Shown piece after piece: positions 10,109 to 33,959 of a DNA stretch of 64,000 nt; within the stretch, counting starts at the first letter, position 1, and every line of letters starts with the position of its first letter. Location: positions 3,491,404-3,555,403 of the forward strand of contig NC_037271.1 of the NCBI RefSeq assembly GCF_000002425.4, in the 5' to 3' direction. Position numbers and translations under genes: made by a program. Origin of the DNA: Physcomitrium patens (Eukaryota; Streptophyta; Bryopsida; Funariales; Funariaceae). The notes below the pieces were generated by a model, which saw only the letters and a program-made list of their open reading frames with translations, made no database searches and was not told the DNA's origin.

Positions 10109-10258
10109 ATATCTAACTTGGACTCAGAAGACTTAACCACACTAACATCTAAGCAGGACTTTAGAGATTCAACCATATCAATATCTAACTTGGATTTAGG
10201 AGATTCAACCATATTAATATCTAACTTGGACTTAGGATATTCAATCATACTAATATCT
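10109..10258. repeat. Minisatellite, four units of 36 bp
   Basis: Four consecutive 36-bp units, with a partial fifth, built on ATATCTAACTTGGA. Because 36 is a multiple of three, the reverse strand stays open and reads as a 12-residue repeat like ESPKSKLDIDMV. It lies in the gag part of the left gypsy fossil and falls in the stretch missing from the right-arm copy. Confidence 0.85.
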
Positions 10259-10280
10259 TCACTTTTTAGCTATCTTAAAA

Positions 10281-10310
10281 AATAAATAAATAAATAAATA
10301 AATAAATAAA
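10281..10310. repeat. Microsatellite (AAAT)n
   Basis: Seven perfect four-base units in a row. A second, less regular tract of the same motif lies at about 10665-10700. Confidence 0.9.
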
Positions 10311-10425
10311 CCAATATTAATTTCAAAGAAAATACTCCACAACCTCTAAATTGCTTAGATGCCTTCAAGAAGAAAGATAATTTACTCTCTATTGAAAAGG
10401 ATCAAGCTCTAATATTGATAAGAGA

Positions 10426-13035
10426 GAAGTTTCAAATTTCTTTTACAAATATACTATATATGAGACCAAACAAGAATTTGAACGAAAGAGTTTCAATAAA
10501 AAACTAACAAAAATTTCATTAAACTTAATGACTATATAATCAATACTAAGAAAGGTGAGCTTAAGCTCAAAGAAATATATTATCAAGATTGAAGATCCTC
10601 TTAGCCTCGACTCCAATATATACTAGATATTAGGAAACTTATTAAGAAGTTTTTATATTGCTTGAAAATAAATAAATAAATAAATAATAAATAAATAAAA
10701 AAAAAACCTTAAAAAGCTCCGTGAGATGTTTTTATGTTGCCTGAAGATTAAGTAATCTTAGAAAGATTCTCCAATAACTTCTTTCATCTTCTTAGAACTT
10801 TTTAAAATCTATTAGAATATTCTAATTTTTTTCTAAAAACTTCTAAAAATTCTTTTTGAAATCTTTTTAAATCTTCTAAAATATAATAGAATATTCTTAA
10901 TATATTCCTAAAATCTTCTTATTGGATGTGTTTAATAAAATTTATAAATAATTTTTAGATAAAAAATTAAAATATTTTTATTTTAATAGAAGTTAAATAT
11001 CAAATTTATATATTTTAAACCAATAAATTCAATGTAAGCTAAAAAACAATTTCCATCTAATACAATAAGATTGATAATTTGATTTATATAATAAATAATG
11101 TGATACTTTTATATCCAAGCTTGTGTAGATTTTGAAAAGGTTTCTCATTCTATTATTGTTTAGAATTGCTATTTTAGATCTTTTGTAAAATTATCAAATT
11201 TTATTCTATTATTTATTAATAACATATTTCTACTAATAAACAAATTATAGGCACTTGTAAAGATTCAAAATCTACATAAAGATGATGGCCAAATCTGTTT
11301 AAAATCTATACAAAGATAATAATGAAGTCTACACAAAATCTATATAGAAATGAAAAAATCTACACAAAGACTACATCTTGGGAAGATTGCTACAAAGAAA
11401 TTCTCAACTTAGAGTCAATTGTTGCATAGCTATCTCAAAATTTTGTAACTTGATTAAAATGCAAAACTGCCTCATACCTATCAACTAGAGATTTTAAACC
11501 AAGTATTACAGAAGCTTTATAACAGTCTTTAATATGATATTTTTGGTATCTAAAATTAAGATAGGATCATCAAGTATTAATTGGAAGCTTAATTCTAGCA
11601 CTAGTAAGGTTAAAATAAGCTTTGAATTTACTAAGATGTAAATTTGTCTAAATCCAAAATTAACATTTGTTATGACAAAGCCTTCAAACACAATCCATTC
11701 ATATTATCAATAATCACTCATATGAGTAGCCATACAATGAGGATGTATCACTTCTGATAATACATCAAGAAGAAGACTTAACAAAATTATCACCCTTGTT
11801 TAAAACACAAGTATAATTGCCAATAATGAAAATCTTAAGAAATACACAAATTAATTTGCAACTATCACCAAACTAATAATGTCTTTAGAGTTTCTTATCA
11901 GTCATGATTGTTGCATAAATAATACAAGTTAGATTTTTTTTACATATCATTTGAAGAAATTTGACATAAAATTTTAAAACCAAAGATGAAGATGAATAAA
12001 AAAATATTATCAATAATTGTAATAATGATTATTTATTCATATAGTGCAATTAGTTAATCATTCCAATTTTTAAAAATTCTAAACTCTTTCTATTACATAA
12101 ACTTAAAACTTTTTTTTATAAGTCCAAGTCAAAAAGTAGTGAAATTAGTTCTTATTGAAAGAAGTGTCATTATGCTCAAAAATGAAAAATAGTTGATTTT
12201 ATGGAACCACCTTCAATCACAATAATAATTAATGCCAAAAAAAATGGCAGCTAAGATCTATGACTCATGATTATAAATTATAATAGAGCACCTTATGCTT
12301 GTATTTTTCCAGCAAAACTATGATACTTTACTTAAGATCATGTATAATACAACAATCTTTTAGTCCATTACAAATCCAAGCATTGGTTTATTGGATGGAA
12401 TTAAACTCTATCTTTTTATTATTTTGAACTATTATTAATAAACAATTATAGCTAATTATTAAATCCAAAAATATCTAAAAATAGATAATTTATTGGATGC
12501 TTCTTTAGAATATTGCCACAAACTTGTCATTGAAATATACATCAAGTATTTAAAGTTTTTAATCATGGCATTGGAACAATCTTAAAATTAAATCATACAA
12601 TGGAGTAGTATAACAACTTTAAAGAAGTCATCTAATAAAAACTTCATCTTGAACTTAGAATTGATTAAACCAAAAAAAAAAAAAAATAATAATAAAAGTC
12701 ATACCAAATTAATATTGTGATCAATTAAAAACCAAAAACCTATGCTAAACTCACAATCATCTTACTTACAAGTATATGGGGCAAAGAAAATACAAATATG
12801 TATTATAAAAGAAAACAAAAGTATACATGGATTTTTGCATCAATAATTAGTGCACTAGGCTATGCCTCATCATGGACTATGTAATCATTAGCATAGTCAA
12901 AGATAGAAATCATGCATAAGTTTTCTTTGTATATTTTTTTCTTTAAAACGACACACATATCTCATGTTCATCTTAAATAATGTAGCAATCAATATATCAA
13001 TTACTTTGATTTTTGACTCAATTTTGATATAAACA
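10426..13035. other. AT-rich stretch present only in the left arm
   Basis: No gene is visible. The left part, beyond the primer-binding-like sequence near 10410, is probably the upstream LTR of the minus-strand gypsy fossil, but without a second copy its ends cannot be set. The right arm lacks the whole of about 10045-13035: its sequence jumps between the two flanking homologous parts near 33960. The gag continues across the jump, so a deletion in the right arm is likelier than an insertion here. Confidence 0.4.
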
Positions 13036-13188
13036 ATGAAAAATCCTACAAATTAGAAAGGTTTTTATTTCCTTTTATTTATGCCTTGTATTTATCTCCA
13101 ATGAATTTTTTCAAATAAAAGATAATTTCTATAAATAAATAAAAACAATTAATATTTACATATTAATATATTTTTATTAAAAAATATC

Positions 13189-13212
13189 TATATATATATA
13201 TATATATATATA
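13189..13212. repeat. Microsatellite (TA)n
   Basis: Twelve TA units. The tract at 33789-33811 lies at the mirror position of the right arm, so both descend from one ancestral tract. Confidence 0.9.
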
Positions 13213-15849
13213 CATTTATGCATATACATTCATTATAAAACTTTTAACTACATCAAAAGTTTTTGCCTTCTTATATTCATTAATCAATAAAAAGTTATAA
13301 AATTTGAAATAGATCCAATTTAAAAATTCATAGATGTTATAATAGAATCTTCATTAATGTTACTTACTCTTCTATTCTAAATTTGATATAGACTTTCAAA
13401 GACTTTATTTTCTTATTCATTTATTAACTTTGGCAAAGACTAAGTATACACCTTAATTTTGATATCTTTGAATTTGGTTTTGACAAAAATTAAGTTTTTT
13501 GCTTTATCCAATATATAGATACTTAAAAGTATGAAAAAATTGATTTAACCTCAATTTTCTAACTTTTGATACATCTTTTCATACATAATCAAATACCTCC
13601 AAATTTCTTTGAAAAAATAACTTAATACTTAATAAGCATACAACTTATTGATATAATCATAAAATTTCAAGGATTAAACTATAAATCAAGCACAAATACA
13701 AAATAAGAAATCTTAACTTAATACTAAATTTATATATTGTAATATTTTAACTTCTAAGCAAAAGCAACAAAATAAAATGAATAGAAATCATAGCATCCAA
13801 CATAAATATGATAATTTTATACATCATGTCGTCTTCTCTTATATAAACTCAAGATTATCATATTTACCATCCATCTTTGCTTATGCCTTGTGAAATTGAC
13901 CTATTCATGATCAATTTTTTTACACAAAAGTTTTGCAATGATAGAACTTAATCAAAGTTCTTATCTTCTGGATTCAAAGTAAGGCAAAAATTAATCCCTA
14001 CAATTCATTTCAAAGGGATCACTGATTCTTTTACCATAGAAAATTTGACATGCATACTTGATGTGATTGTTGTGATTATAGATTGATATTCTACTACAAA
14101 AATTGCATCAAGTAACAACTTCTCCAACCATTATTGTAGTAAGATTAGTTGCTTTAGAAAAACATAAGATTTATAATTGTAATTAGATATGATCTGATAC
14201 TAGCTTTGATTCAAAAAAATTCCACTACTTCATATTCAAAATAATATATAAGAGTTATTACTTGATCTTCACTCAACTAGGTGCCATAGTTCCATATTTC
14301 ATTAGATTTATAGATGTGATGACTCTTTAGAAAGCTTCTCAATCCATATATATATACATCAAATTTTACCTCTTAAATTTTTTAAAACATATTTAATGAA
14401 CAAATAAAGTTAATGATCATATTAGTACAAGGCAATTGACTCAACTTTAACCAAAAAATTTATGCCTTTTTAATCCTAAATCTTCTTAAAGCAAGTGAGA
14501 GCTTTTTGAAAAGTTCACAAAGTAAGGAATTGCTCTTCAAAATCTCCAAATAAAATACTAAAAACACTAAAAAACAATTGCCAAAACAAAATGGTCAAAC
14601 AATTCCTAAAGAGTGATTAGCTCCCTATTTCTTCTACAACACATCCCATCTTTATAACTAGCTAGAAAGCATGTGAAATTAGATGGCAACAAACCATCTC
14701 AAATTTGTATAAAATACTTACTATTCAACTTCTTATCCATATACTTTTTTAAATCCGGAGGTTGCCTTAACTTGCTAATGTTGACAACAAGTAGAACCTA
14801 AGTTATTGTAATCACCAATTCACAGTACCTTGGTGAGAAATCATAGACCTCTACTTCAATACACATATGTAAACTTCAACACTTGAGAAGAACATATCCA
14901 TGGCAAAAAAAAATGTCCATGGTGAAAACTAGTTATCGACTTCTTTTTCAAAACAAAAACGTCCATGCTGAAAACTAATTATCAACTTTCTTTTCAAAAC
15001 ATGATTCTAATACGTCATACTATAATATATTCCGTAAAATGCATTATAATATACCACATGTGGGTACACAACTCATTAAATCACTAGCTTGTCAATCCTT
15101 CCACAAAATTCTAAAGACATTCAATACAATACATACACAATGTAAACAAAGACAGACATGAGAACAAAATCAACTAAGTTAGTTCCATAGATGAAAACAA
15201 ACTAGCAATTGACTTGAACCAAAACTCTATTTAATACTACAAGTACCACAAGATATCACCAAGGATAGATTATTGCAAGCCCACTTATAATAAGCGTCAG
15301 AACCTACCTACTACACAAGCATTTCTCCACTCTAGTCTTACTTCAGCTTTGCTCGACAAAGCCCTAAGGCAATCCTTGGGTGTACAAATGAAGCAACTAT
15401 ATCATCCATATAAATTCTAATTATAGGAACATCTTCTAAATGGCGGCTTCATTAATCCAAATGGAGCAATGATCTTCAATGTGGTGAAACATGTACAACC
15501 CTCAAAACGATGAAGGTCGATTTTGACAATCAATGCAAACATCATTCTTACGCAATTTCTGATAAATATGATCAAAAGGTCAAATAAAACAATAATCCAT
15601 AAAAAGTTGACATTCAAATGACAACATAGGTAGCATTCCTTTGGAATGAAACAAAACAAATAAAGCCATGCCACAAAATAACGCATAGAACTAGCAAATT
15701 CAAACAAAAAATACGAGACCCTAAACACTTGAAAACTACTCCACCACCAACATATCTTAGAAAATTCACAACTACAAACCTCTTTGCCTACAAGCTCAGA
15801 AATTCCATCTCCCAATTTCAACTAAATTCAACACTTAAAAATATTTAAA
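13213..15849. other. Diverged outer part of the left arm, no gene recognised
   Basis: Matches 29036-33788 in reverse complement with many substitutions, mostly of the C-to-T and G-to-A kind. Near 14200 the reverse strand contains TAGTATCAGA, reminiscent of an initiator-Met primer binding site, so 14.2-15.4 kb may be an old LTR, but no partner LTR was found. The open frame at 15417-15821 is not conserved in its right-arm counterpart and is probably not a gene. Confidence 0.4.
14905..15000. repeat. Two-copy tandem repeat of about 47 bp
   Basis: The segment with GTCCATGGTGAAAACTAGTT is repeated immediately as GTCCATGCTGAAAACTAATT, each with a TTTTCAAAAC tail. The right arm has only one unit (about 31100-31150), so the duplication or loss followed the arm duplication. 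Confidence 0.75.
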
Positions 15850-16850
15850 TTCAACTAAATTCAACGCTTCAAAATACTTAAATGTACATTCATACAAATT
15901 TATTGCCATCAACTTGACACACCAATTTCTTTAGATAGTGCCTTTGTATCATCTATGTAGCACCCTAATATCACAAAGTTTGTATGATTTCATCCATTTG
16001 TTTTGGATTTCAACCAAGAATTTAGAAATTTCATTTTGTTGATTCTATACTAGATGTTGAATCTCCCTCCCCATACATGACTAGATCTCAAATGCCAGAA
16101 ATTTCATTAATCTATGTTTCATTGCCATCGAGGTTCTAAGAGAAGCACCCCTATCAATTACCCACCAAATCCACGTCATGTTCAAGTGGATGAACCCCCT
16201 ATCCAACATATCAATCTCTGTGAAAGAACACATCAATGCAACACCCAATTCTGAACCATAAAAGTTGTACAAGCACACAGACGTGGCATAATGAAAAATA
16301 TGCAATGTGCATCATAGAATCATCGCAGAATAATACATTGGACACAAGATATGTTATGCTCATGCAGCCTTGCCAGCAGAGCACTTGTCTGTGCCCAGTT
16401 TGATCTAAAGCTCCACCTAAATATACACTACACCGAATCCTTTGTGCAACGAAATTTTGCTCCTGCTCCAGCAAAATCACGGCCACTGCAACGACTTCGA
16501 ACATGACAACAACAACCGTCAAAAGCTTGAAAACCAGAGCTTTCAGGAGCTAGTCCATATCGCCGAAACAATATCTGTCAAACTCTTTCCTTTGCGGTGT
16601 TGCATGTTACACTTTGGGCCTCGGCTTCACATCCATCCGCTTGGATGCTACCCGGGGGACGTCCGTGTCCGTAGCGCCTCCGCATCTGCTCACCGACGAG
16701 CGGCTCCATGTCCAGCGGCTGGTCGCACGGCTCGCTGCTGATCTGAATCATGCACGGCGAAGGAGCGTGGTCCACACCCGCACCCGGCCACCGCCCCTGC
16801 ACACACCCTGTCCCTCATCCGATGCGTTTCTCGCGCCCTGCTTCCCCCAT

Positions 16851-18092
16851 TTACACGTTCGCGGCGGCGCGAAGCACCAGCACCTCCAACGTCAGCCCCG
16901 GCCCGAAGCCGATGAAGAACCCGAAGTCGCTCCCCTCTCCCAGCGTGGACGCCCCCATCTTCACCGACCTCTGCCGAATCTGATCCAGCACGAACAACAC
17001 CGACGAGCTCGACATGTTGCCGTACTCCGACAGGATGTCCCTGCTCCCCTGCATCTTGTCCTTGGTCAGCTTCAGTTTCGCCTCGACCTGGTCCAGGATG
17101 GCCGGGCCTCCTGGGTGCACAGCCCAGAACATTTCGTTCCACTCCGGCGACCCAACGCACTTCCTGGCCTCGTTCAAGAACTTCTCGATGTTCTTGGAGA
17201 TCAGCCCTGGCACGTCCTTCATGAGGTGGAAGATGAGCCCCGCCTCCGTGAGGTGCCCGTCGATGGCGCCGTCGCTCTCCGGCAAGATCGACTCGCCCGC
17301 CCAGTGCACCTCGAACAACGCCTTCTCCGCCTCGGGCTTGGGGTCGGATCCCACCACGTACACGCCGGCGCCATCGCCGAACAGCGCCGATCCCACCAGG
17401 CCGTCCAAGTGGTTCTCGCTCGGGGCGCGGTAGGTGACGGCCGTGACCTCGCTGCACACCGCCAGCACCCTGGCGCCCTTGTTGTTCTCGGCCAGATCCT
17501 TGGCCACCCGGAGCACGGACGCGCCGCCGAAGCACCCGGTCTGGTACATCATCACCCGCTTCACGGTGGGCTTCAACCCCAGCAGCTTGGCCAGGGCGTG
17601 GTCGGCTCCGGGCATGTTCACGCCGCTGGTGGTGGCGAACACGATGTGTGTGATGTCGGACTTGCGGCCGCCCCACTCCTTGATGGCCTTCTGCGCGGCC
17701 TCGGCAGCCAGCTTGGGCACCTGGACGACGACGATGTCGTGGCGGACGTTCAGGGAGGGCTCCATGTACGTGCACATGCTGGGGTTGGCCTTGAGCACCT
17801 CCTCCGTGAGGAACATGTGGCGCTTCCTGATGCCAGACTTGTCGCAGATGCGCTTGAATTTGGCGTGCAGGGCCTCCTTCTCGCTGGTGTTGGTGATGTT
17901 GAAGAAGAAGTCGGGGTACTCGCTCTGCAGGAACTCGGTGGGAGGCACAGCAGTGCCGATGCCGAGCACGCACGCCGGACCCTCCGCACGGGGCTGACCC
18001 CTGGGAATTGGCGCATGCATCCTCACGAGGGGGGCGGCGGCAACCTGCTCATCGGAGGCGGCGACGTCAAGCTCTCCGGCTCGCGGTGCCAT
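16851..18092 (-). CDS. CHS: Chalcone synthase (naringenin-chalcone synthase), left copy
   Basis: A type III polyketide synthase that condenses p-coumaroyl-CoA with three malonyl-CoA units to naringenin chalcone, the first step of flavonoid synthesis, in the cytosol. The single exon encodes 413 residues, identical to the right copy. The catalytic triad is Cys187 (in QTGCFGG), His326 and Asn359, each exactly 23 later than alfalfa CHS2 numbering because of a longer N-terminus. The gatekeepers Phe238 and Phe288, and the substrate-pocket residues Thr155, Ser156, Met160, Thr220, Gly279 and Ser361, match the chalcone synthase set rather than stilbene synthase or pyrone-type relatives. GFGPG is at 395-399. 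The ATG at 18092 is the first in-frame one; the frame stays open about 140 bases upstream without another ATG. It lacks the intron typical of seed-plant CHS genes. It is transcribed away from its twin, with start codons 8.7 kb apart. Confidence 0.93.
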
Positions 18093-18819
18093 TGCTGCCA
18101 ACGGATGTGCTAGAGCCTGCGACGTGAATCCCAAACTAGGTCGTCTGCACAGAAACTTCGGAATGGATAGGCACCCGAGCGAGCAACAAGCGACACGCTT
18201 TGCAAACGTTTTCGGGTCGAGAACTACAACCAAAACTCTTATGCTCGCTGAATCGGGAAAAGGGGTCTGAATCGGCAGCGACGCTGCGATGTGCGAACCT
18301 TGAGTGGATGGATTGCCTGTGTGAGGATTGAGGATCGGTGGGCTTTAAGAAGTACTCCCCCTGCAACCTAGTAGCCGAGAAGAGAGTTGCGACGACTGGA
18401 GCTTCTGTTGTGGTGAGGGGTTCATGGCGCACTGCGTCACATTCTGCACGGGTCCACCTGCTTGGAAAGGGGGGCTGTGGCGTTCGGAAACGAGTCTGCG
18501 AGGAGGCGTTGAATTGTTGAAAGTCGGGCTCCTTTTGGACTCCTGGACCATGGTGGTGGATGATTGGCTTGAAACCAGGCTGCTGTTTGTGATGAATCTG
18601 AATGCCAATCGCATATGTGGATGATGATTTATGGTTCGTGTTCGGTCATTTTCTTCGCTTGCCGGCTGTCGCAGGTCCTATTTACACCACGCCCCTGGTC
18701 AAACCTTCTTTTGGTTGATGGAATTTGAAGGAACATAATATCTGGATGTTCCTGAGTTGGCTTGGAATGTCATGTCGTGTCGATAGGCTGACTGGTTTAA
18801 TTTTTGCTCTGAATAGTGT
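18093..18819. other. Upstream region of the left CHS gene
   Basis: 18093-18485 is part of the near-identical core and should hold the 5' untranslated region and proximal promoter. 18486-18555 still aligns with 26315-26400 but poorly. Beyond about 18560 no match to the right arm is seen, so the two genes have different distal promoters. No clear TATA box or CACGTG G-box was found close to the start. Confidence 0.5.
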
Positions 18820-21800
18820 TTTATTTTTTATTTTGTTTTAACACAAATAGAGATTGTTCTCTATTGCAGAAAGTTAAAACACAAGAACCTAGCCAGGTCC
18901 GGGCAGAGAGACACTCGAAACCTACGCCCTATAAATAAAGTTATTACCACCACCAACTAGTTTCCATTCTGGGTTAGTATGTTTCCACTCCGCTAGCACA
19001 TTGTTTGTACACTATTGTGTGCAAAATTGGTTGATGTATTCCTTTGCTCAAAGTTGCGTACTTCTCATTTTGTTCTGGGTTTTAAACCTTGAGTTGCGAG
19101 TGTAATCAACTAGATGGAACCAAATCTTCTGATATATTTTTTCTATAAGCCCCTATAGTCCATTGACCAAAGCATCGTTTTACTTGATCTACATCACCAC
19201 CCTTCACATTAGTTGCTCGGTACTACTTACCTTTTTGAAGTGCCTTAATATGCTATATACAAACATGGAGTATTTCAAAGAAGGATAAAATTGAGTTAAT
19301 CCTACCCGTTGATTTTGACTTATCAATTTATTAGTTGGTCTAGTTAGGACATTCTTCCAACAATGCATACCACATATATTGCCAATGGTTGTAGGATTTG
19401 GTCTTGTGATGTGCTTAGTTTGAGGTATGAGTATTTGGAGGATATGGCTTCACCATTGCCAAGCTTTCCTCATAGATTTGCACTCCCAGAATCTGTACAT
19501 GATTGTTTCTTGTATCTTTGTTAAACACACTTAGTAACATTATTTTATTTCCTTCTCCAATGTCCCTAGCCATACATTTATCACTGTTGTATAATACCCT
19601 GGTAGTCATATAAGTCCTATTTCTTTTAACATGCACTCTTTATTCCAAAAATTTGATTATTTTATTTTTAGACTATAATATTTTATATCACTTGATACTA
19701 TTGTAGTAGATTGTGGTCTCATTTGGTAGTATAGGTTATGAAAAAGATTTTCCTTGTCTAGTGGAACCTCTATGGATTTCATATCAATATATTTATTCTT
19801 TAATAACATAAGATTTTAGGTTTTTTTTTCCTTGATTTTATAATTAACAATATTATAATTCTTTTGAGCACCTCCCTTAGAAATGTGGAGTGATGGCTTT
19901 GTTGCTCACATTGATGGTTCTATCTTGATCTACTTTCTTATGACATTTTAACAAGGCAACTTGTTACAATATTAAAGATGTATACCTTGATCTAAGGTGG
20001 GATCCAAAATTTGATGGCTTGTGATCCTACTTGGCAGCCTGTAGTAGCTTGCTAGATCAACAATGATATAAGAAACTATATGTCTTAGAATACTTTTGTC
20101 AATTCAATGTTTTCTATCTTAAAGTCTAATTTCAAGAGGATCTATTGCTAATGGTCCTCAAAGGTAGCCACTAGAACTTCCTATGGTCCAATCTCTCATT
20201 TTTTTAGGTCAAATTTGGCCTTGGGACTTTAAAGATTAAAAATATTTGCTTCAATTCATATATCATTATACTTTTGTAAACCACATTTATATAACAAAGT
20301 TGCTATTGGATGGAAGAAGTCCAAACCAATGCTAGGAAAATTAAAGTAGTACCACACAATGTAGTCGAGTCATATTTCTTGACACAATGACAAAAAGATT
20401 GGCAATTCTAGAAGAAAGACTTTCTATGTTGATGTAATTCTATTCCAAATTAGAAAGCCGTTTTTGCTTTGATGTTTTGTGTTGGTGAAGAATTTATGAC
20501 TTGGTTGCTATGCTTCCCTTGTATATGATTGAAACTATTGAAGAAAATAATACAGCATTAAGTACAAATTAAAGCTACTTCAATTTGAATGCCTCTAACT
20601 ACCTATTTAATCAATAGAGTCATTATTACATTTATGGAATTAATAAGATTGATGCCTTCTTTATATACACATTGGTATTATTGAGGCCATGCCATTTTCA
20701 TGAATGTCCTTTAGATTGTTTGCCATATAAGATAATTAGTTGGAAAAGCTTTGATTTTTATAATATTCTTTTTTGTGCTTTTTCATAATAAGATGAAAAA
20801 AAACATCATAAATAATATAATACTATTCACTATCATCTTTTTATCAATAGAATTAATCATGGTTGAATATCAATAGTTTAAATTTTTTAAAATTGATTTC
20901 TTTTAAAAAGGTGTCAATATCTTTGAATGTTAGAGAGAAACCAAAAGAAGCTCCTAATAACTTACTCATTGATTCTTTTTCTGCCCATGTAACTTTCAAC
21001 TTATTTTTTTAAAGTGAGTGGATTGAAACTTGATTGCTTTTCTAGTGATCACTTAATTTAGATCAATTTAATATCAAACTTGATCCCTTGTAGAATATTT
21101 TTAATGTATAGATAATATTTTTTTACACTTATTGCTTCACCAAGCAAGATCAAAGATATATCATCTGTGTATTAAACTAGAATTTTTTGTCGTTGTACTA
21201 TAGATAGTTGCATTTCTTTAATGTATCTATTTTTTGCTTCTTTCATGAATATTTCATTAAAGACCTTAGTTACAATTATATTATATGAATGAATTCTATG
21301 GAGAGTCCTATAGTATCTAAAGTTTTAAAGAAAAAAATTCCACTCAATTATATCATAGGCCTTTAAAAAATCAAGCCTTAAAAAGAAGATAAAGATAAAT
21401 TGATCTTTATTAATAATCTTCACAAAACTTAGTTGGAGACGTAGTTGTAGTACCTTTGTATAGATTGTGTAGCTTATATTTAAGAGAATAATTGGCTTCC
21501 AATTAATAAGGTTGCTTCTTATTCTCTTTTTATAGAATAATGCTATCATACCTTGTATCATATTTGGTAGGAAGCATCCTTTGTTGATGCTTTCATTTAA
21601 CATATTTAAGAACTTATGGTTGATTATATTCTAAAATAATTTGTAAAATTCTAAAATCACTCCATGAAGTCTTAGAGACTTTTTTATATTCATATTTTAT
21701 GTTATTATTATGAATCCACCAAGGATTAGTAGTACCTTTAATTTGTATATTTTTTCTTGTTCCAACCTACCTCTTATGCAATCCATTACTTATTAAGTGG

Positions 21801-24800
21801 CTTGCCACGTTTTTGAAATGATCTTTTGGACCTACTATTGTTGCTTGTAAAAATTTAGAAAAATATTTGTCATGCTATCTAGGTTGTGATATAGATGCTT
21901 ACTTTTATTCTCTATTTTGATGATGTAGGCTATTGTTGCACCTTTCTATGAACCTAAAAAACTCTTGAGTGCATTGGTCTACTATTCATTGCCACTTTAG
22001 TCTAGATCTAATGTTCTGATCCTTTGCCTTCAATGCTTTAAGTTTTTGGATTTGATCAATGCAGTTGGTCAATTACGCATGCTTGACTTTGTTCTCTATG
22101 TTTTTCTATAGCATCATAATTGCATCTACAAGCTCGTTGCTGACTTGCTTTTCAAATCTTTTCCTTCTTTGAACCTTGTTCATGTAATGGATCTTGTAAA
22201 ACTTAGTGTATCTATGGAGTTTGCTAAAGAATAATAAGTTGGAGTGAGATTGCTAAATCAACTTTACTTGCATTAAAATCAACTCTTATTTTAAAAACTA
22301 AGAACTCTTCATATACATTGATTTGTGGTGGAGGTAAATTGAAGGTGGATTTATCTCGACATGGCCAAATGATCTAAGAATGTATTGTCACTCGGGATTA
22401 TATATTCTAGATTTAAAGAACAAGCTCTAAGTATTTTGAACACATGAATTTTTTCTAATTAGGCTAAAATGCGCAAGCCATTCATTCTTCTATTATATCA
22501 ATTATATCAAATCTTTCTTAATGTTAGAAAGTTATTTTTGACTTACAACATATTTCTTTGTTAGTAAAAAAAAAAAACTTACATTCTTTATCTAAAATGA
22601 TTACTTTATGAAGGTTAGATTTGTTGCATATATTTTCAACTCCATTCTAGTCTCTTGTGATTATCCATCGACAATCTATGGATAACATATTCAACAACTC
22701 TAACCATAATGTACATCGCTTTCTTTGGTGTAAGTTGTGTACACATTTAAAACCTTTATATTATCACCCACAAGCCTTTTGAATCTTATCTAATACTTTC
22801 AACTTAAATTAGAGAACCCAATCAATTCTATTAGGTGTAACATATAGAAAGTGATCCATATATCAACCCCTCTTCTTTGTCCTACCTTTATGCATTGAGT
22901 AGTTATAAGCTACTACAACTTCATAATAGAAAAAACTAGTATTTGGCCATATCATATTTTTCAAGGCCATTAATTTATCTCCACACAATTTGTATTCATG
23001 TCTCCAAAGAATATTAATCTTCTAAATATATTACCAAAAATAATTCTTAACTACTTTAATTTTTGTTGGATCATAAAATCCTTACTATTTTGTATCAAAA
23101 TATAAATTTTCATTGTTCAAGAGAAGATAATGGAGTAATTTGATCTTAAGAGTTTTTATTAGTATATTCCAAAAGTCAATTGATTTTTCTTTACTGCATG
23201 AGATCAAGAGAACATTGCCTCCTTAATATCTCTAAATGTTGATTTTGCTACTCATTGTCTGATTGGTTAATCTATTTTGTATATTCAAGTTGGTGAAATT
23301 GCTTATTATTCTTTGCCTTCTTAATCATTCAATTAAGAATAAGATTGAAAATATGAAGATATCTTTATTTGTTTTCTATAATATCTTTAGTAAAAAGTTA
23401 AAGGATTGAAATTTCTCCTTCAATCTTAGCTTATTATATCTTAGGTTTGCAAGATGTGAGGTCCTAGCTATATCTTAGAAGTTAATTTTGTAGACTTTCA
23501 TTGATACCAAACACATTGAATATCTTCTATTAAAGTCAATATCAAGCTACATTACCTTATAATCAAATTATTCACTTGGACGGATGTGAAATATCCTACT
23601 TATCATGTTAAATTGTACTTTTCTATCCTTGTTCATTTTTTTAATTGCAATATCATTTATTTAGTTTATTTGGCTAATAATTATGTGTAGTTTGTTGTTT
23701 AGTGCACCCATTTCTTTAACCAACGTACATTCAATTTGAGATCCTAACCATGACACAATAGTCATTTTTTTTTAAGAATTTTGCTAGAAATTATGATGTT
23801 CTTAAATTTGAAGATCCATCTTAATGATGGACTTTTCTTTAGTGGATGCTGAGAAGAAATTTGGAGCTTCTTTTGTTCTTCTTTTTTGCACATTTTTTGA
23901 ATTAGTTACTATTTTGATTGAATCACTACATGATTGTCCCATCCAAACATTTTTTGCTTTATTAAATTTATTTATATCTGTGATTTAACTTATATTATAA
24001 GATGATTTCTACCTTCTTTGTTGTTTTTTACTTAGCTCAATTTTCTACTCTAGGCTTCTATCATGTAATTGGTTGGATGAACTTCGTTTCTTTATTTGGA
24101 TTTTTTCTTATTGAGCTTGTAAATCCATGGAAGAAATCTTGAACTTGCACTTGATTTTGTGGTTGAAAAATAGATTTAAGATCCCATTACCTTGTTCAAG
24201 AGATGAGGCAATAGGAAGGGAGGGGAGATTTTTTACTAGCAATGAATATTAATTGATTTTTATTTCTTGATAAGTTTATTTCTTCTAATAGAACTACTTG
24301 ATTTGTAAGGGATTTACTTTGTCTTGATCCACCTTTTTAAGTCGGTTTTTTTATGTGTGGGATTGATGAATATTCTTATACTAGAAGTTTTGTTGATAAG
24401 TAGTATGAGCACCTGTTTAATAAATAGTCATAGTCAATTTAGATATACTTTTTTCTTCTTGTTGTCAAATTTGTTGCTTTAATGGCTAAGTATATGGATA
24501 TCTATTTGTTAATGCAACACAAAATTATTTCTCTATCCCACTATATTTATCTCTATTTTTATCTAATTTTTGGTTGAGACCTTATACTAATTTGTAAGCG
24601 CTACTTAACATCTCATCATGGACAAACTTAAGTGTCACTCAAGTCACTATTTTCATATCAATTAAGAGACATGGAATGAACTTTGCCATCTACAACTGAT
24701 AGATGCAAGTCTCCCATTAAAAAATGTATGGAGTCTTCATCAAAACCTTTTACGATGTTGCTTTGTCTTTGCTTACCAACTAAAAGAAAACCATGACTTC

Positions 24801-25000
24801 TATCTTGTTTCAATTGGAGGTCTTCTTCAACTTCCATTCTCAAATGATACAACCAAGTTTCTAACAATTTTGTTGACGGTCTTCCTTCTACAAAATATGC
24901 TATTACCACAAATTATTGTAAATAGTCAATTTATTTATTTATTTTTCATTTCCATGGATTTCTACAACTTTTGTACTCAACAAAAAACTAATACAAATAT
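18820..25000 (-). mobile_element. Decayed L1-type LINE filling the spacer between the two CHS genes
   Basis: Read leftward the order is that of plant L1 elements. 24658-24909 resembles the ORF1 nucleic-acid-binding domain (FVEGRPSTKLLETWL, later LMGDLHLSVVDGKVHSM). About 22600-22750 resembles the endonuclease domain. 21325-21603 is reverse transcriptase with IALFYKK, NWKPIILLNISY and LDFLKAYDIIEWNF, and the Y-x-D-D box lies near 21165 as YTDD in the context LILLGE. The segment that should carry GVRQGCPLAPYLF between KAYD and YTDD is missing, and several frames and stops intervene, so it is inactive. The 3' side (19063-19803) has a second copy at 6613-7412. An A-rich tail on the reverse strand at about 18820-18840 may mark the 3' end. 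Total length of about 6 kb fits a nearly full-length L1. Confidence 0.65.
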
Positions 25001-26314
25001 GAGTTAGCTTGTTCATGAATTTTTCACCTAGAGTTGCTTAAATAGGATTGATGGCCGCAAATCTTTGAAGATTAGTTGTTGCAACTATCAATTTTGGCTC
25101 CACCATATTGCCCTTCAATGCTTGTTTGACCATCCTATTTCTAATGCTATGGGGGCTATCGACACTTGCCCTAGACTTGTCATTAGTGCGCATCCACATA
25201 CAATGCCATGATCAGTCTGATGACACATTCACTCGATGTGTTAGTTGTATGGTCAATTACTACTATCTTAATTATAAATCCTAAGTTGCAATATAGCCCT
25301 GCAATTGAACAATTTTACTTGGTGGACAAAATGAATGCACTGTGCAACTATTCTTGTGGTTTCTGCCTGTCATGCAATAAAGCTCTCTCGAGTGTCATAG
25401 TGTCCAACCAGCTTCCTAGTTCTTTTGTTTGAAACCATTTGTTCTTTTTGGTGTCATGGATATTACCATGAATGTAAGTTATCTGTTACAATAAGAATTT
25501 CAAATGAAATTCGAAATTCGGCTTTAATAAGATTAGTGCTTGTACCAGTGTAAAAAAAATATTACAATGTTTCGACAGTTTGCAGTTTGGAACAATTAGA
25601 TACCGATGTACTTTTGCTAAATCTTCCTCCAAACAATGTTGCTGTTATTGCTTAATAAAAGCTCAGATGGTGTAGTCTTTTCGTACATCCAATGAATGAA
25701 TCACATCACATGTACCGTCTTTGCGTCAAAAATGAGTCGCTCCTGACATTCTGAACGGCCTCTTTTCTCTTTGTGGAATTTTAAAGACTGACCATGGAAA
25801 GGACCAAAAGCTATGTATTGTAATGTCTCCCCAGTTGGACTACTTCTCACGCGAACGTTGACCCAATCATCAAAACCTGTTCCTCGTTTCTTCAAACGGA
25901 GACAAACTAATAAATAAATTTCAAAAAGTGCGGTGGGCCCAAAATACGATCTTCGAATCCTCCATGACGCAATCCAAAAGAACATACAGTCAACCATTGA
26001 CGCATCCAAATATTACGGGCTAGAATATTCTATTCTTGAACAGTCGTTGAACCAAACCAAATCCAAAAAAGGCACATAATGATCACACGGTCACCCCTAA
26101 GTCTACTGAAACTTACAGACATGTCCCACTACCAAATAAACATTTACCTGAAATCAAACCGATCATATCAACGCGGCCAAACCCGTTGGACAAAAACAAA
26201 ACACGTACAACGAACTCACTCAACCCACAAACCAGCCGCCAACATTGAGGCAAACAAAGTCCTCTTAACCCATAGAAAAGGAACTGTTGCTCCATCTGCA
26301 CAGGGAACCTGCAT
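25001..26314. other. Intergenic sequence upstream of the right CHS gene
   Basis: GC content rises gradually toward the gene and the sequence is not repeated elsewhere in the window. A minus-strand open frame of 102 codons (25701-26009) resembles nothing I recognise. This should be the distal promoter of the right CHS copy, different in sequence from that of the left copy. Confidence 0.45.
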
Positions 26315-26792
26315 AATTCAAGGTCCAAAAGCGCCAAACATTCCACAATTCAACGCCTCCGCAGATACTTTTCCTAAAGTCTTTCGCAAACTCGATTCTG
26401 AACGCCACAGACCCCCTTTCCAAGCAGGTGGACCCGTGCAGAATGTGACGCAGTGCGCCATGAACCCCTCACCACAACAGAAGCTCCAGTCGTCGCAACT
26501 CTCTTCTCGGCTACCAGGTTGCAGGGGGAGTACTTCTTAAAGCCCACCGATCCTCAATCCTCACACAGGCAATCCATCCACTCAAGGTTCGCACATCGCA
26601 GCGTCGCTGCCGATTCAGACCCCTTTTCCCGATTCAGCGAGCATAAGAGTTTTGGTTGTAGTTCTCGACCCGAAAACGTTTGCAAAGCGTGTCGCTTGTT
26701 GCTCGCTCGGGTGCCTATCCATTCCGAAGTTTCTGTGCAGACGACCTAGTTTGGGATTCACGTCGCAGGCTCTAGCACATCCGTTGGCAGCA

Positions 26793-28034
26793 ATGGCACC
26801 GCGAGCCGGAGAGCTTGACGTCGCCGCCTCCGATGAGCAGGTTGCCGCCGCCCCCCTCGTGAGGATGCATGCGCCAATTCCCAGGGGTCAGCCCCGTGCG
26901 GAGGGTCCGGCGTGCGTGCTCGGCATCGGCACTGCTGTGCCTCCCACCGAGTTCCTGCAGAGCGAGTACCCCGACTTCTTCTTCAACATCACCAACACCA
27001 GCGAGAAGGAGGCCCTGCACGCCAAATTCAAGCGCATCTGCGACAAGTCTGGCATCAGGAAGCGCCACATGTTCCTCACGGAGGAGGTGCTCAAGGCCAA
27101 CCCCAGCATGTGCACGTACATGGAGCCCTCCCTGAACGTCCGCCACGACATCGTCGTCGTCCAGGTGCCCAAGCTGGCTGCCGAGGCCGCGCAGAAGGCC
27201 ATCAAGGAGTGGGGCGGCCGCAAGTCCGACATCACACACATCGTGTTCGCCACCACCAGCGGCGTGAACATGCCCGGAGCCGACCACGCCCTGGCCAAGC
27301 TGCTGGGGTTGAAGCCCACCGTGAAGCGGGTGATGATGTACCAGACCGGGTGCTTCGGCGGCGCGTCCGTGCTCCGGGTGGCCAAGGATCTGGCCGAGAA
27401 CAACAAGGGCGCCAGGGTGCTGGCGGTGTGCAGCGAGGTCACGGCCGTCACCTACCGCGCCCCGAGCGAGAACCACTTGGACGGCCTGGTGGGATCGGCG
27501 CTGTTCGGCGATGGCGCCGGCGTGTACGTGGTGGGATCCGACCCCAAGCCCGAGGCGGAGAAGGCGTTGTTCGAGGTGCACTGGGCGGGCGAGTCGATCT
27601 TGCCGGAGAGCGACGGCGCCATCGACGGGCACCTCACGGAGGCGGGGCTCATCTTCCACCTCATGAAGGACGTGCCAGGGCTGATCTCCAAGAACATCGA
27701 GAAGTTCTTGAACGAGGCCAGGAAGTGCGTTGGGTCGCCGGAGTGGAACGAAATGTTCTGGGCTGTGCACCCAGGAGGCCCGGCCATCCTGGACCAGGTC
27801 GAGGCGAAACTGAAGCTGACCAAGGACAAGATGCAGGGGAGCAGGGACATCCTGTCGGAGTACGGCAACATGTCGAGCTCGTCGGTGTTGTTCGTGCTGG
27901 ATCAGATTCGGCAGAGGTCGGTGAAGATGGGGGCGTCCACGCTGGGAGAGGGGAGCGACTTCGGGTTCTTCATCGGCTTCGGGCCGGGGCTGACGTTGGA
28001 GGTGCTGGTGCTTCGCGCCGCCGCGAACGTGTAA
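26793..28034 (+). CDS. CHS: Chalcone synthase (naringenin-chalcone synthase), right copy
   Basis: Same 413-residue product as the minus-strand copy, with no amino-acid difference: catalytic Cys187, His326 and Asn359, Phe238 and Phe288 gatekeepers, and GFGPG near the C-terminus. The condensation reaction feeds the flavonoid pathway. The first in-frame ATG is at 26793; a short upstream open frame starts at the ATG at 26460 (26 codons) if transcription begins before it. Codons are strongly G/C-ending, in sharp contrast to the AT-rich surroundings, which marks a maintained gene island. The distal promoter beyond about 26315 is not shared with the other copy, so the two genes could be regulated differently while making the same enzyme. 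Both copies look intact; which one is expressed cannot be told from sequence. Confidence 0.93.
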
Positions 28035-29345
28035 ATGGGGGAAGCAGGGCGCGAGAAACGCATCGGATGAGGGACAGGGTGTGTGCAGGGGCGGTGGCCG
28101 GGTGCGGGTGTGGACCACGCTCCTTCGCCGTGCATGATTCAGATCAGCAGCGAGCCGTGCGACCAGCCGCTGGACATGGAGCCGCTCGTCGGTGAGCAGA
28201 TGCGGAGGCGCTACGGACACGGACGTCCCCCGGGTAGCATCCAAGCGGATGGATGTGAAGCCGAGGCCCAAAGTGTAACATGCAACACCGCAAAGGAAAG
28301 AGTTTGACAGATATTGTTTCGGCGATATGGACTAGCTCCTGAAAGCTCTGGTTTTCAAGCTTTTGACGGTTGTTGTTGTCATGTTCGAAGTCGTTGCAGT
28401 GGCCGTGATTTTGCTGGAGCAGGAGCAAAATTTCGTTGCACAAAGGATTCGGTGTAGTGTATATTTAGGTGGAGCTTTAGATCAAACTGGGCACAGACAA
28501 GTGCTCTGCTGGCAAGGCTGCATGAGCATAACATATCTTGTGTCCAATGTATTATTCTGCGATGATTCTATGATGCACATTGCATATTTTTCATTATGCC
28601 ACGTCTGTGTGCTTGTACAACTTTTATGGTTCAGAATTGGGTGTTGCATTGATGTGTTCTTTCACAGAGATTGATATGTTGGATAGGGGGTTCATCCACT
28701 TGAACATGACGTGGATTTGGTGGGTAATTGATAGGGGTGCTTCTCTTAGAACCTCGATGGCAATGAAACATAGATTAATGAAATTTCTGGCATTTGAGAT
28801 CTAGTCATGTATGGGGAGGGAGATTCAACATCTAGTATAGAATCAACAAAATGAAATTTCTAAATTCTTGGTTGAAATCCAAAACAAATGGATGAAATCA
28901 TACAAACTTTGTGATATTAGGGTGCTACATAGATGATACAAAGGCACTATCTAAAGAAATTGGTGTGTCAAGTTGATGGCAATAAATTTGTATGAATGTA
29001 CATTTAAGTATTTTGAAGCGTTGAATTTAGTTGAAATTGGGAAATGGAATTTCTGAGCTTATCCACAAAGAGGTTTGTAGTTGTGAATTGTCTAAAATAT
29101 GTTTGTGGTGGAGTAGTTTTCGAGTCTTGAGGGTCTCGTATTTTTTGTTTGAATATGCTAGTACTATGCATAATTTTGTTTTGTGGCTTTATTCGTTTTG
29201 TTGCATTCTAGAAGAATGCTACCAATGTTGTCATTTGAATTTCATCTTTCAATGGATTATTGTTTTATTTAACCTTTTGATCATGTTTATCAAAATTTGC
29301 ATGATAGTGATGTTTGCATTGACCATCAAAATCTATTTTTGCCAT
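28035..29345. other. 3' flank of the right CHS gene
   Basis: Up to 29035 this is nearly identical to 15850-16850 in reverse complement and must include the 3' untranslated region and terminator. From 29036 the similarity falls at once to roughly 85-88%. Open frames here are antisense-type or short and not conserved in the diverged part. Confidence 0.6.
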
Positions 29346-30624: not shown

Positions 30625-33600
30625 TTATTTTGATGGCTACACATGCATTACCACAATGAAGGTCATTGCCCCATTTGGATTTACAAAGTCACCAATTGGA
30701 AGATGTTTCTATAATTAAAATTTATATGGATGATATCATTGCTTCATTTGTACAACCAAAGATTTTCTTAGGACTTTGTTGAGTAAAGCTTAAGTAAGAC
30801 TAGAGTGGAGAACTACTTGTGTAGTAGTTAGGTTCTGATGCTTATTGTAAGTGGACTCACGATAATCTCCCTTTGATTTAGGTCAATTACTCGTTTGTTC
30901 TCATCTATAGAATTGACTTGGTTGAGTTTGTGCTTATGTTTGTCTTTGTTTATACTCTGTGTGGGTTGTGTTGTAATGTCTTTAGAAATTTGTGGAAAGA
31001 TTGAGAAGCTAGTGATTATAGAGTTGTGTACCCACAAGGGATATAATGCATTATATTATACTAATTATATTACAGTGTAACATACTAGAATCATGTTTTG
31101 AAAAGGAAGTCAATAACTAGTTTTTAGCATGGACATTTTTGTTTGCCATAGATATACTCCTCTTAAGTGTCGAAGTTTATATATGTGTATTGGCGTATGG
31201 ATCTATGATTTTTGACTAAGGTTCGTGAACTGGTAATTACAAGAACTTAGATTCTACTTATTGTCAACATAAGCACGTCAGGGTAATTTCTAAATTTGAA
31301 AAAGTACATGGACAAGAAGTTGAACAGGAAGCATTTTTTGCCAATTTGAGATGGTTTGCTGCCTTTTATTTTCACATGCTTTCTAGCAAGTTATAAATGA
31401 ATGTTTTTTCATTTAAAAACGTACTCATACGTAAGTAAAATTGCGATTTGTTAAGAGTATTTAAAAAAGAACTTAGAATTTTCAGCAATTTCAATTTCTC
31501 AAAGATCATGTGATAACTATTTACTAAGATTTACCAATTTCCAAATGAACCAAGGTATGTAAGATTTTTAAATTTTGTAAAAATATTTAATCAAGAAATT
31601 TTATTATTGATGTTTTGTCATAAAGTTCAACACTCAGAAGAATGTCATTGGAGTTTTGCATGGGTTTGATTAGATCATGAACCTTGTGCTTGATAATACG
31701 ATTGAATTAAAAAAAGTATAAGAGCTCCATCTTAACACCCACAAAAAAGTCCCATCCTTTTTTTTAGGTCTTGGAATAATAGTCAATTAGGAAAGTAGCA
31801 TAGGTAAGCTTCTTAAAATTAGGGCTTTTGTCAAAATTATTCTGTATATCTTTAGATTAGATTAATTAGATGTCCTAAAATAAGGCTCCTTTGATATCTT
31901 TTTACATGATGTAGTAGTAGAAGTGATATAATGTGTAAAAATATGAAACAATATTATAAAAATTATATTTTTAGTATAAGAATAAAAGAAAAAAAAAGAA
32001 AAAAATAAAAAAAATATATAATTACAAATATTGATAGTTTATCTTTAAAGATAAGTCAAGATAGATTGGTATAGAATTGAGATGGATTGGTATGGTGTTA
32101 AGGTAAAGAGACATGGGCTAAGGTGGAGTGACATGGATTTGTGTTGATTTTTGGATTCTTTTTTGTTTTTTTCTTTGCTTGGATTTTTTCTCCTTTGCTA
32201 TAGTCAATTATTCTTTTGTATATTTTTCATAGTGTTTTTAGTATTTTTTTCAATGATTTTGAAAAGTGGTTTTTTTTTCTTTGTAAGCTTTTCTAAAAGC
32301 TCTTACTTGCTTTAAAAGGAATTATTATAAAGATGAAATATATTTTAGAAGAAATAGGGAGCTAGTTACTCTTTAAGATCTCTTTGACCATTTTGTTTTG
32401 CCAATTTTTTCTTAGTTTTATTAGTATTTTATTTGGAAATTTTGAAGAGTAATTCTTTACATTGTAAACTTTTCAAAAAGTTCTGACTTACTTCAAGAAG
32501 ATTTAGGATTAAGAAGGAGTGAGTTTTTTGATTAAAATTGAGTCAATTGCCTTGTATTAATATGATTATTAAATTTTTTTGTTCATTAAATATGTTTTAA
32601 AAAGTTTAAGAGGTAAAATTTGATATGTATATATGGATTGAGAAGCTTTCTAAAGAGTCATCATATGTTGAAATCTAATGAAGTATGGAACTATGGCACC
32701 TAATTGAATGAAGATCAAGTGACAACTTTTACATATTATTTTGAACATGAAGTAGTGGAATTTATTCAAATAAAAGGTAGTATTAGATTATATCTAATTG
32801 CAACCATAAATCTTGTGTTTTTCTAAATCAAATACTCTTACAACAAAAATGGTTAGAGACGTTGCTACTTGATGTGATTTGTTTAGTAGAATATCAATCT
32901 ATAGTTACAACAATCACTTCAAGTAGGCATATTAAAATTTTCTACGGTGAAGGAATTTGTGATTCCCTTAAAAATATTTGTGGTGGCAGAGTTTTGTCTT
33001 TTATTGAGTCCGCAAGATGAGAACATTGATTAAATTCTATCACTATAGAACTTCTTTGTAATAAATTAGATTATAAAGAGGTCAATTTTATAAGGCATAA
33101 GAGGAAGTAGATGGTGAATGTGATAATTCTAAATTCATGTGAAAAGAGAAGATATGATGTATAAAATACTTATATTAATCTTAGATGCTATGATTTTAAT
33201 TCATTTTATTTTTGTTGTTTTGATTTGAAATTAAAATATTACAACAAATAGATTAAGTATTAAGTTAAGATTTCTTATTTCTTAATTATACTTGATTTGT
33301 GGTTGAGTCCTTAAAATTATATAATTATATCAATAAATTATATGCTTATTAAGTACTATGCTTGATTTTCGTTGAAGTTATTTTTTCAAAGGAATTTGGA
33401 GGTATTTGATCATATATAAAAAGATGTATCAAAAATTAAAAAATTGAGGTTAAATCAAATTTTTCATGCTCATAAGTATCTATGTATCAAATAAAGCAAA
33501 AAAATAAATTGTTATCAAAATTAAGTTAAAAGATGTCAAAATTAGGCTATATACTTAGTCTTTGATAAAGTTAATAGTTGAATAAGAAAGTCAAGTCTTT

Positions 33601-33959
33601 AAAAGTCTATAACAAATTTAGAATAGAAGAACAAGTAACATTAATAGAGATTCTATTATAACATCTATGAATTTTTAAGTTGGACCTATTTCAAATTTTA
33701 TAACTTTGTAATTGTCTCATGAATACAAGAATGTAAAAACTTTGGATGTAGTTAAACGTTTTATAATGAATGTATATTCATAAATATGTATATATATATA
33801 TATATATATATGAATAGATTTTTTTTAATAAAAATATATTAATATGTGAATATTATAGTTTTATTTATTTGTAGAAATAATCTTTTATATAAGAAAATTC
33901 ATTAGAAATAAATAAAAGGCATAAATACAAAGAAATAAAAACATTCTTTAATTTTTTGC
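30625..33959. other. Diverged outer part of the right arm, no gene recognised
   Basis: Reverse-complement match of about 13040-15450. AT-rich, with no conserved reading frame. The primer-binding-like sequence of the left arm is here only as TAGTATTAGA near 32785. Confidence 0.45.
33789..33811. repeat. Microsatellite (TA)n, mirror of 13189-13212
   Basis: About eleven TA units at the position symmetrical to the tract in the left arm. Confidence 0.9.

What the first reader, a model, noticed from the sequence alone, without database searches (positions are those of the whole stretch)
15850..29035. Two head-to-head chalcone synthase genes kept identical inside an otherwise diverged inverted duplication
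The 2636-bp blocks 15850-18485 and 26400-29035 are colinear without any indel I can find. By eye I found only two differences (18370 against 26515, and 18474 against 26411), both near the inner edge, and the 413-residue products are identical. Just outside, in the same duplication, similarity drops at once to about 85-88% with indels. Selection on protein cannot explain identical introns-free flanks and about 1 kb of 3' non-coding sequence. A recent gene-conversion tract is the simplest reading; inverted repeats can pair in cis.
Basis: partly seen in the sequence, partly recalled or inferred. Interest (0 to 1): 0.7.

Follow-up and report, generated by a model that had tools for sequence, protein, structure and literature searches.

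The report
Moss chalcone synthase copies kept identical
A moss carries at least six near-identical copies of its flavonoid-making chalcone synthase gene on two chromosomes, and the DNA around them indicates that the copies have been overwriting one another, a known process (gene conversion) seen here unusually clearly.

Summary
In detail: 15850-18485 and the reverse complement of 26400-29035 differ at 2 of 2636 bases, without gaps. It is only part of the picture. The genome, almost certainly Physcomitrium patens, holds at least four such cores on this chromosome and two more (98-99%, one cut short) on another.

Gene conversion is well supported, but not as a private exchange within this pair. 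The clearest tract joins window copy 1 to a directly oriented copy 120 kb away: 4/3423 mismatches, with homologous flanks diverged 15.3% and 19.5% on either side. Core and 5' flanks give conflicting relationships. Between chromosomes Ks is 0.007, while the colinear spacer differs by 12-13%. A second chalcone synthase cluster shows similar mosaic blocks.

Corrections: the left edge is a 33-bp insertion private to copy 1; on the inner side the flanks are two unlike sequences, not an 85% duplicate. The copy 2/copy 3 likeness may be plain duplication. No reads or other accessions were available, and a long run of N lies between copies 3 and 4, so consensus mixing cannot be fully excluded. New member of a known kind.

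The parts
15810..18473 (-). Copy 1 core: tract homogenised with copy 2 (1/2631 mismatches in aligned columns)
   Evidence: change-point fit; alignment
15697..19152 (-). Longer copy 1 tract homogenised with copy 4 (C19:3627731-, 120 kb away): 4/3423 mismatches, flanks 49/320 and 73/374
16851..18092 (-). Copy 1 chalcone synthase gene, one uninterrupted frame, 413 aa
26412..29042 (+). Copy 2 core, partner of 15810-18473 (coordinates converted from the copy 1 change-point, allowing for the 33-bp insertion)
26793..28034 (+). Copy 2 chalcone synthase gene, one uninterrupted frame, 413 aa, identical to copy 1
15833..15865 (.). 33-bp imperfect tandem insertion in copy 1, absent from copies 2-5; makes the apparent left edge
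18474..19482 (.). Type A upstream flank, shared in full only with copy 4 (18502-19482: 95% over 981 bp; nearly identical up to about 19152)
21743..29179 (+). 7.4-kb block 99.88% identical (reverse complement) to C19:3588187-3595623 (copy 3)
22256..26383 (.). Head-to-head spacer and type B upstream flank of copy 2, colinear in pieces (about 86-90%) with C24:12083664-12101197 between copies 6 and 5
13020..14657 (.). Outer arm of the older inverted duplication (15% diverged); its 14127-14657 part also matches many dispersed places at 70-76%
32325..33984 (.). Partner of the outer arm 13020-14657
8309..10014 (.). Outer arm of the inverted duplication (19% diverged)
34001..35690 (.). Partner of the outer arm 8309-10014
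15315..15809. 3' flank of the CHS unit, 84-88% alike: most of it beside copies 4 and 5, parts beside copies 2 and 3; its 15315-15494 part also at C19:3.479 Mb without a CHS core. One search scored 40 of 179 candidates, so other places may exist

Best explanation
The two window genes belong to a set of at least six chalcone synthase copies that evolve in concert by ectopic gene conversion. Shown: an older duplication (flanks, spacers and arms 9-20% diverged) carries gene-centred blocks that are 99.9-100% identical among copies 1-4 and between copies 5 and 6, and about 99% identical between the two chromosomes. Shown: within C19 the identical blocks have sharp ends, include non-coding sequence, differ in extent from pair to pair, and conflict with the relationships given by the 5' flanks. 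Inferred: a broken copy is repaired by synthesis from another copy (synthesis-dependent strand annealing, or a double Holliday junction without crossover), with the copied tract ending where homology falls to about 85% or is lost. Inferred: this has happened repeatedly, most recently within chromosome C19 and within C24, less recently between them.
For: Copy 1/copy 4: 4/3423 mismatches in the tract against 49/320 and 73/374 in colinear homologous flanks on both sides, log-likelihood gain 210.7. Copy 1/copy 2: 1/2631 against 41/293 on the outer side. Copy 5/copy 6: 0/2756. Incongruence: on the 5' side copies 2, 3, 5 and 6 share one flank and copies 1 and 4 another; at rel 11637-11805, 8 of 23 variable sites group copies 2, 3 and 5 against 1 and 4, and 3 more group 2 and 3; in the core (rel 9029-11636) 35 of 37 variable sites set copy 5 apart from 1-4 and none groups 2 and 3. 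C19/C24: Ks 0.007 (2 differences in 295 synonymous sites), 843 identical bases in a row, against 174/1419 and 159/1202 mismatches in two pieces of the colinear spacer. Synonymous sites are not frozen in this family: Ks 0.69-0.74 from copy 1 to four other CHS genes, two of which have the same coding sequence. A second cluster on C2 (5 copies, both orientations) has a best shared block of 99.65-99.93% in 8 of 10 pairs, with identity continuing on different sides in different pairs.
Against: No second accession, outgroup or sequencing reads could be examined, so 'changing together' is untested and an assembly consensus error remains possible. The inner edge of the copy 1/copy 2 tract is a loss of homology, which a duplication breakpoint would also give. 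Copy 2/copy 3 (7.4 kb, 9 differences) fits plain duplication: no homology beyond the 3' edge, and beyond the 5' edge only 67 bases of copy 3 are readable before a run of N. Outside the copy 1/copy 4 tract (rel 11806-11985) the 3' flanks give no clear grouping: 3 sites for copies 2+5, 3 for 2+4, 1 for 4+5. Between C19 and C24 the 5' side is a ramp rather than a step (copy 2/copy 5, 100-bp windows 87, 90, 95, 96, 99, 100%). One study of LTR retrotransposons reports a low proportion with conversion signs (up to 20%) in P. patens (PMC7251063, passages).
Confidence: 0.85

Rival explanations
1. Only recent segmental duplications: young copies pasted into the region, without conversion of existing copies.
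For: Copy 2/copy 3 share 7.4 kb at 99.88%, with no homology outside the 3' edge and only 67 readable bases outside the 5' edge of copy 3; the region is rich in repeats, including a 3.7-kb block 99.5% identical at C19:3480269 and C19:3625308.
Against: Copies 1 and 4 have colinear homologous flanks diverged 15.3% and 19.5% on both sides of the identical tract, and copies 1, 2, 4 and 5 share a diverged 3' flank; a pasted young copy would carry equally young flanks.
Confidence: 0.07
2. Assembly artefact: reads of several slightly different cores were merged into one consensus and laid down at each locus, or one locus is duplicated in the assembly.
For: A long run of N (an assembly gap or a withheld stretch; I cannot tell which) lies between copies 3 and 4 and begins 67 bases past the end of the 7.4-kb block; copy 4 lies about 6 kb beyond it; the fifth copy of the C2 cluster is interrupted by 100 N.
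Against: The window itself holds no N. The same assembly keeps C19 and C24 cores apart at 27 of 2538 sites (copies 1/5), keeps single core differences (18370 in copy 1; 16402, where copy 4 differs from 1-3), and gives copies their own flanks. By that yardstick only differences below about 1% could be hidden, far below the 14-20% of the flanks.
Confidence: 0.06
3. Nucleotide-level selection or a very low mutation rate in the gene keeps the copies alike.
For: The core is gene-centred and richer in G+C than its surroundings.
Against: Identity among copies 1-4 holds over nearly 1 kb of 3' non-coding sequence; synonymous divergence to other CHS genes is 0.69-0.74; the edges within C19 are steps; flank and core relationships conflict.
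Confidence: 0.01
4. Conversion templated by cDNA (retro-conversion), which would also fit genes without introns.
For: The window genes are one uninterrupted frame, while matches in the C2 cluster are split by about 260 bp, read here as an intron.
Against: Tract ends differ between pairs and run far upstream: to about 1.06 kb before the ATG for copies 1/4 and 0.79 kb for copies 5/6. Transcript ends are not known to me.
Confidence: 0.02
5. The inverted pair is kept as a source of double-stranded RNA that silences chalcone synthase, as at the soybean I locus (recalled; only titles in the reference list of PMC4942065 seen).
For: Inverted identical CHS copies occur in both systems.
Against: Here the genes are head to head with about 8.7 kb between start codons, so transcription diverges; identity extends to directly oriented and interchromosomal copies, which such a role does not need. 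No RNA data were available.
Confidence: 0.02

Closest known systems
Concerted evolution of tandemly arrayed and dispersed genes in Physcomitrella (PMC3045890, passages read, citing Lang 2008, not seen)
   Same: Near-identical paralogues in the same species, conversion proposed, including between chromosomes.
   Different: In the passages seen it is proposed from similarity and relatedness; here a tract with diverged homologous flanks on both sides and a core/flank conflict are shown.
Physcomitrella CHS superfamily (17 putative genes cited in PMC3431822, passages; the original by Koduri et al. was not met in my searches and not looked up; that some of its genes exist in multiple copies is recalled)
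   Same: Same gene family and, by recall, multi-copy members known.
   Different: No account of conversion tracts or of the two flank classes was met in the listings and passages of my searches; most subscription papers are not in that library.
Drosophila hsp70 inverted gene pairs (recalled, no call)
   Same: Inverted duplicate genes homogenised by conversion with diverged surroundings.
   Different: Here at least six copies, both orientations, two chromosomes, a plant.
Soybean I locus, inverted CHS cluster (recalled; reference titles seen)
   Same: Inverted repeat of CHS genes.
   Different: The soybean locus acts through small RNAs (recalled); nothing here points to that, and no RNA data were available.

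Membership tests
Ectopic gene conversion tract | Step from near-identity to diverged homologous sequence on both sides | tested here: met
   Copy 1/copy 4: 49/320, 4/3423, 73/374. For copy 1/copy 2 met on the outer side only; the inner side loses homology. Between C19 and C24 the 5' side is a ramp.
Ectopic gene conversion tract | Non-coding and synonymous sites included | tested here: met
   0 synonymous differences among copies 1-4; 3' non-coding included.
Ectopic gene conversion tract | Core relationships conflict with flank relationships | tested here: met
   5' flank classes and site patterns at rel 11637-11805 against the core; the outer 3' flank, rel 11806-11985, was inconclusive.
Ectopic gene conversion tract | Copies change together in other accessions or species | not testable with these tools
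   Only one genome of this plant was available.
Ectopic gene conversion tract | Copies are physically real and separately assembled | tested here: inconclusive
   Own flanks and single core differences speak for it; a long run of N lies between copies 3 and 4 and no reads were available.
Chalcone synthase (type III polyketide synthase) | Both chalcone/stilbene synthase domains | tested here: met
   PF00195 E 5.9e-98, PF02797 E 1.2e-60.
Chalcone synthase (type III polyketide synthase) | Cys-His-Asn catalytic motifs and GFGPG motif (motif strings recalled; the triad is named in the abstract of PMC3431822) | tested here: met
   TGCFGG at 185, AVHPGG at 324, GNMSS at 358, GFGPG at 395.
Chalcone synthase (type III polyketide synthase) | Makes naringenin chalcone | not testable with these tools
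   No assay. The three nearest solved chains are named chalcone synthase.

The most novel reading that the evidence does not exclude
The moss runs a gene-centred conversion network: six or more chalcone synthase copies on two chromosomes share one enzyme, proximal promoter region and 3' region, kept alike by recurrent conversion, while two unlike classes of distal upstream sequence (type A: copies 1 and 4; type B: copies 2, 3, 5 and 6) lie outside the block common to all and are free to diverge. Conversion would thus separate evolution of the protein from evolution of its regulation.
Probability: 0.3. Interest if true: 0.55.

Novelty: new member of a known kind. Interest (0 to 1): 0.4.

Why it matters
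P. [quoted passage not shown] This locus gives mapped tract ends, possible partners at 8 kb, 18 kb, 120 kb and on another chromosome, both orientations, and diverged internal controls. It could be used to measure natural tract length, distance dependence and the homology limit of ectopic conversion in a moss. It also warns that ages of CHS duplicates read from coding sequence (Ks 0 to 0.007) would be far too young.

Tried and rejected
Transposition of the core as an element: a search for inverted repeats of 18 bases or more around the two window cores listed 10 and 7 pairs, A+T-rich simple sequence or imperfect 18-34-nt pairs, none at the core edges, and tract ends differ by pair; rejected. 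A smooth decline instead of steps: for copies 1/4 the slopes within the tract were not significant (p 0.46 and 0.64, with only 2 mismatches each, so low power) and the change-point fit was strong; rejected for that pair. For C19 against C24, slopes inside the core were not significant (p 0.28 and 0.6), while three ranges that run past a fitted edge were (p 3e-11, 3e-19, 2e-18); on the 5' side the windows look like a ramp, so I leave step or gradient open there. Selection alone: rejected by Ks to other family members and by the non-coding identity. Methylation-driven decay as the reason for the diverged flanks: transitions/transversions in the six flank pieces counted were 36/13, 48/25, 22/19, 44/30, 15/21 and 28/39, so C-to-T decay alone does not explain them. 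Paper searches on CHS copy number and conversion in this moss gave nothing specific to these tracts in the listings and passages seen. The original CHS family paper was not looked up; the moss UV-B paper is not held.
Full report
WHERE IT IS. The window is C19:3491404-3555403 of a 470.4-Mb genome.

OBSERVATION. Confirmed to the base: 2 differences in 2636, no gap. Each core holds one uninterrupted 413-residue chalcone synthase frame (16851-18092 minus; 26793-28034 plus), identical in protein and in codons. The genes are head to head: transcription runs outward.

MORE COPIES. A search of the whole genome with the core found four near-identical full-length copies on C19 and two on C24, one of which lacks the outermost 3' part. 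The tool calls its counts lower bounds. I call them c1 (window copy 1), c2 (window copy 2), c3 (C19:3588331, minus gene strand), c4 (C19:3627731, minus), c5 (C24:12101600, plus) and c6 (C24:12081272, minus). 'Rel' numbers below count along c1 in gene sense; rel 9001 is window 18501, the ATG is rel 9410 and the stop ends at rel 10651. A protein search gave 65 matches, many of them fragments or other family members.

TRACTS. A three-segment fit on the six-copy alignment (ten pairs fitted, all given here) gave: c1/c4, rel 8350-11805 (window 19152-15697), 4/3423 mismatches, flanked by 49/320 and 73/374; c1/c2, rel 9029-11692, 1/2631, outer flank 41/293, inner flank 4/26 before homology is lost; c2/c4, 1/2608, outer flank 48/316; c3/c4, 1/2631, outer flank 15/148; c1/c3, 1/2608, outer flank 19/171; c5/c6, 0/2756 with 4/6 and 1/21 at the ends; c1/c5, 27/2538 with outer flank 87/581; c4/c5, 25/2538 with outer flank 107/580; c2/c5, 36/2767 with 29/179 and 51/392. 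For c2/c6 the fit split differently: 33/66, 70/787 in the upstream part and 25/2361 in the gene part.

TWO FLANK CLASSES AND CONFLICTING HISTORIES. Upstream of about rel 9000, c1 and c4 share one sequence (type A) and c2, c3, c5 and c6 another (type B); right at the border (rel 8960-9005) the two classes still resemble each other. Type A over window 18502-19482 has only one other full-length match in the genome, at c4 (95%), plus partial, more distant ones. At rel 11637-11805, among 23 variable ungapped sites of c1-c5, 8 group c2, c3 and c5 against c1 and c4, 2 group c2 and c3 against the rest, 1 groups c2 and c3 with c5 showing a third base, and 12 are of other kinds (9 of them c5 alone). In the core, rel 9029-11636, 37 sites vary: 35 set c5 apart from c1-c4, 1 is private to c1, and 1 groups c4 with c5 (c6 was left out of these counts because it ends at rel 11393). 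Further out, rel 11806-11985, the sites of c1, c2, c4 and c5 give no clear grouping (3 for c2+c5, 3 for c2+c4, 1 for c4+c5). So by the 5' flank and the zone next to the 3' edge c2 and c3 go with the copy on the other chromosome, and by core they go with c1 and c4; the outer 3' flank is silent. Exchange of the core explains this simply.

THE HEAD-TO-HEAD PAIR IS OLD. The spacer beside c2 (window 22256-25300) is colinear in pieces, at about 86%, with C24 between c6 and c5, interrupted there by other sequence. Two pieces give 174/1419 and 159/1202 mismatches. I infer that the head-to-head arrangement existed before the C19/C24 duplication and that each pair was homogenised afterwards. C19 and C24 coding sequences differ at 2 of 295 synonymous sites (Ks 0.007) and 5 nonsynonymous sites, with 843 identical bases in a row. 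Against the spacer this points to conversion between chromosomes as well; there the 5' side is a ramp (c2/c5, 100-bp windows 87, 90, 95, 96, 99, 100%) rather than a step. Four other CHS genes, two of them with the same coding sequence, give Ks 0.69-0.74 to c1, so synonymous sites are free to change.

WHAT MAY NOT BE CONVERSION. c2 and c3 share 7.4 kb with 9 differences. No homology was found beyond the 3' edge; beyond the 5' edge only 67 bases of c3 can be read before a run of N. Plain duplication of that block is at least as good. The end of c6 at rel 11393 lies beside an LTR-type element (direct repeats of 552 bp, 98.2%, at C24:12074881 and 12080711).

GENERALITY. Five CHS copies on C2 (24508, 24643 plus; 24613, 24696, 24813 minus; kb) were compared in ten pairs: the best block is 99.65-99.93% identical in 8, and 98.9-99.0% in the two others, both with 24813, which is itself interrupted by 100 N. 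Some further blocks with 24813 are 95-99%. The sides on which identity continues differ by pair: 24508 and 24643 agree downstream, 24643 and 24696 upstream, 24613 and 24696 downstream. A pair at C2:21.35/21.43 Mb is 99.95% identical over 1846 bp.

MECHANISM. Most likely: repair of a break in one copy by copying from another, without crossover, repeated over time. The inferred steps are the repair route and the frequency. c1/c4 are in direct orientation 120 kb apart, c1/c2 inverted 8 kb apart, c5/c6 inverted about 18 kb apart, so hairpin pairing in cis is not required.

LIMITS. No reads, second accession or outgroup could be examined. A long run of N (assembly gap or withheld stretch) lies between c3 and c4. 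Merging of reads from different cores could hide a few differences, but the same assembly kept c1 and c5 apart at 27 of 2538 sites.

LITERATURE. PMC3045890 (passages) states that tandemly arrayed genes in this moss are highly similar and may undergo concerted evolution by conversion, citing Lang 2008, and proposes ectopic conversion for hexokinases. PMC3729371 (passages) links conversion and efficient recombination repair to intron loss. PMC3431822 (passages) cites 17 putative CHS superfamily genes. PMC7251063 (passages) reports a low proportion of conversion signs in P. patens LTR elements, which speaks against a generally high rate.

VERDICT. A clear, well-bounded case of a known process in a known multi-copy family. 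The two flank classes outside the shared block are the most interesting lead.

Noticed in passing
L028:4496-5603 (C18:4782496-4783603): A 379-bp piece of the CHS 5' region (92%), ending at the ATG, sits with a piece matching C18:13955312 (89%) between 34-bp inverted repeats (94%) that also match C20:10438203-10438256; it looks like a captured or patchwork-repair insert.
   Followed up: partly
C19:3473314-3480269 (L020): Sequence 81-92% like the 3' flanks of CHS copies 2, 3 and 4, in pieces, with no match to the CHS core: perhaps a site that lost its gene.
   Followed up: no
C19, between copies 3 and 4: A long run of N (assembly gap or withheld stretch); if a gap, more copies may lie in it.
   Followed up: no
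C24:12074881-12081262: LTR-type element (552-bp direct repeats, 98.2%) ending 10 bases from the truncated 3' side of copy 6.
   Followed up: partly
C19:3480269-3483946 and C19:3621631-3625308: 3.7-kb inverted repeat, 99.5% identical, near copy 4 and left of the window; another young duplicate or mobile element.
   Followed up: no
window:16614-18113 and 26772-28271: The strand opposite each CHS gene is open for 499 codons; the gene has GC3 of 0.91, higher than four other CHS genes (0.76-0.81), which would fit biased conversion but was not tested.
   Followed up: no
window:53837-57701: Reading frames on the minus strand that look like retrotransposon polyprotein pieces (judged by eye, no family search made).
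   Followed up: no
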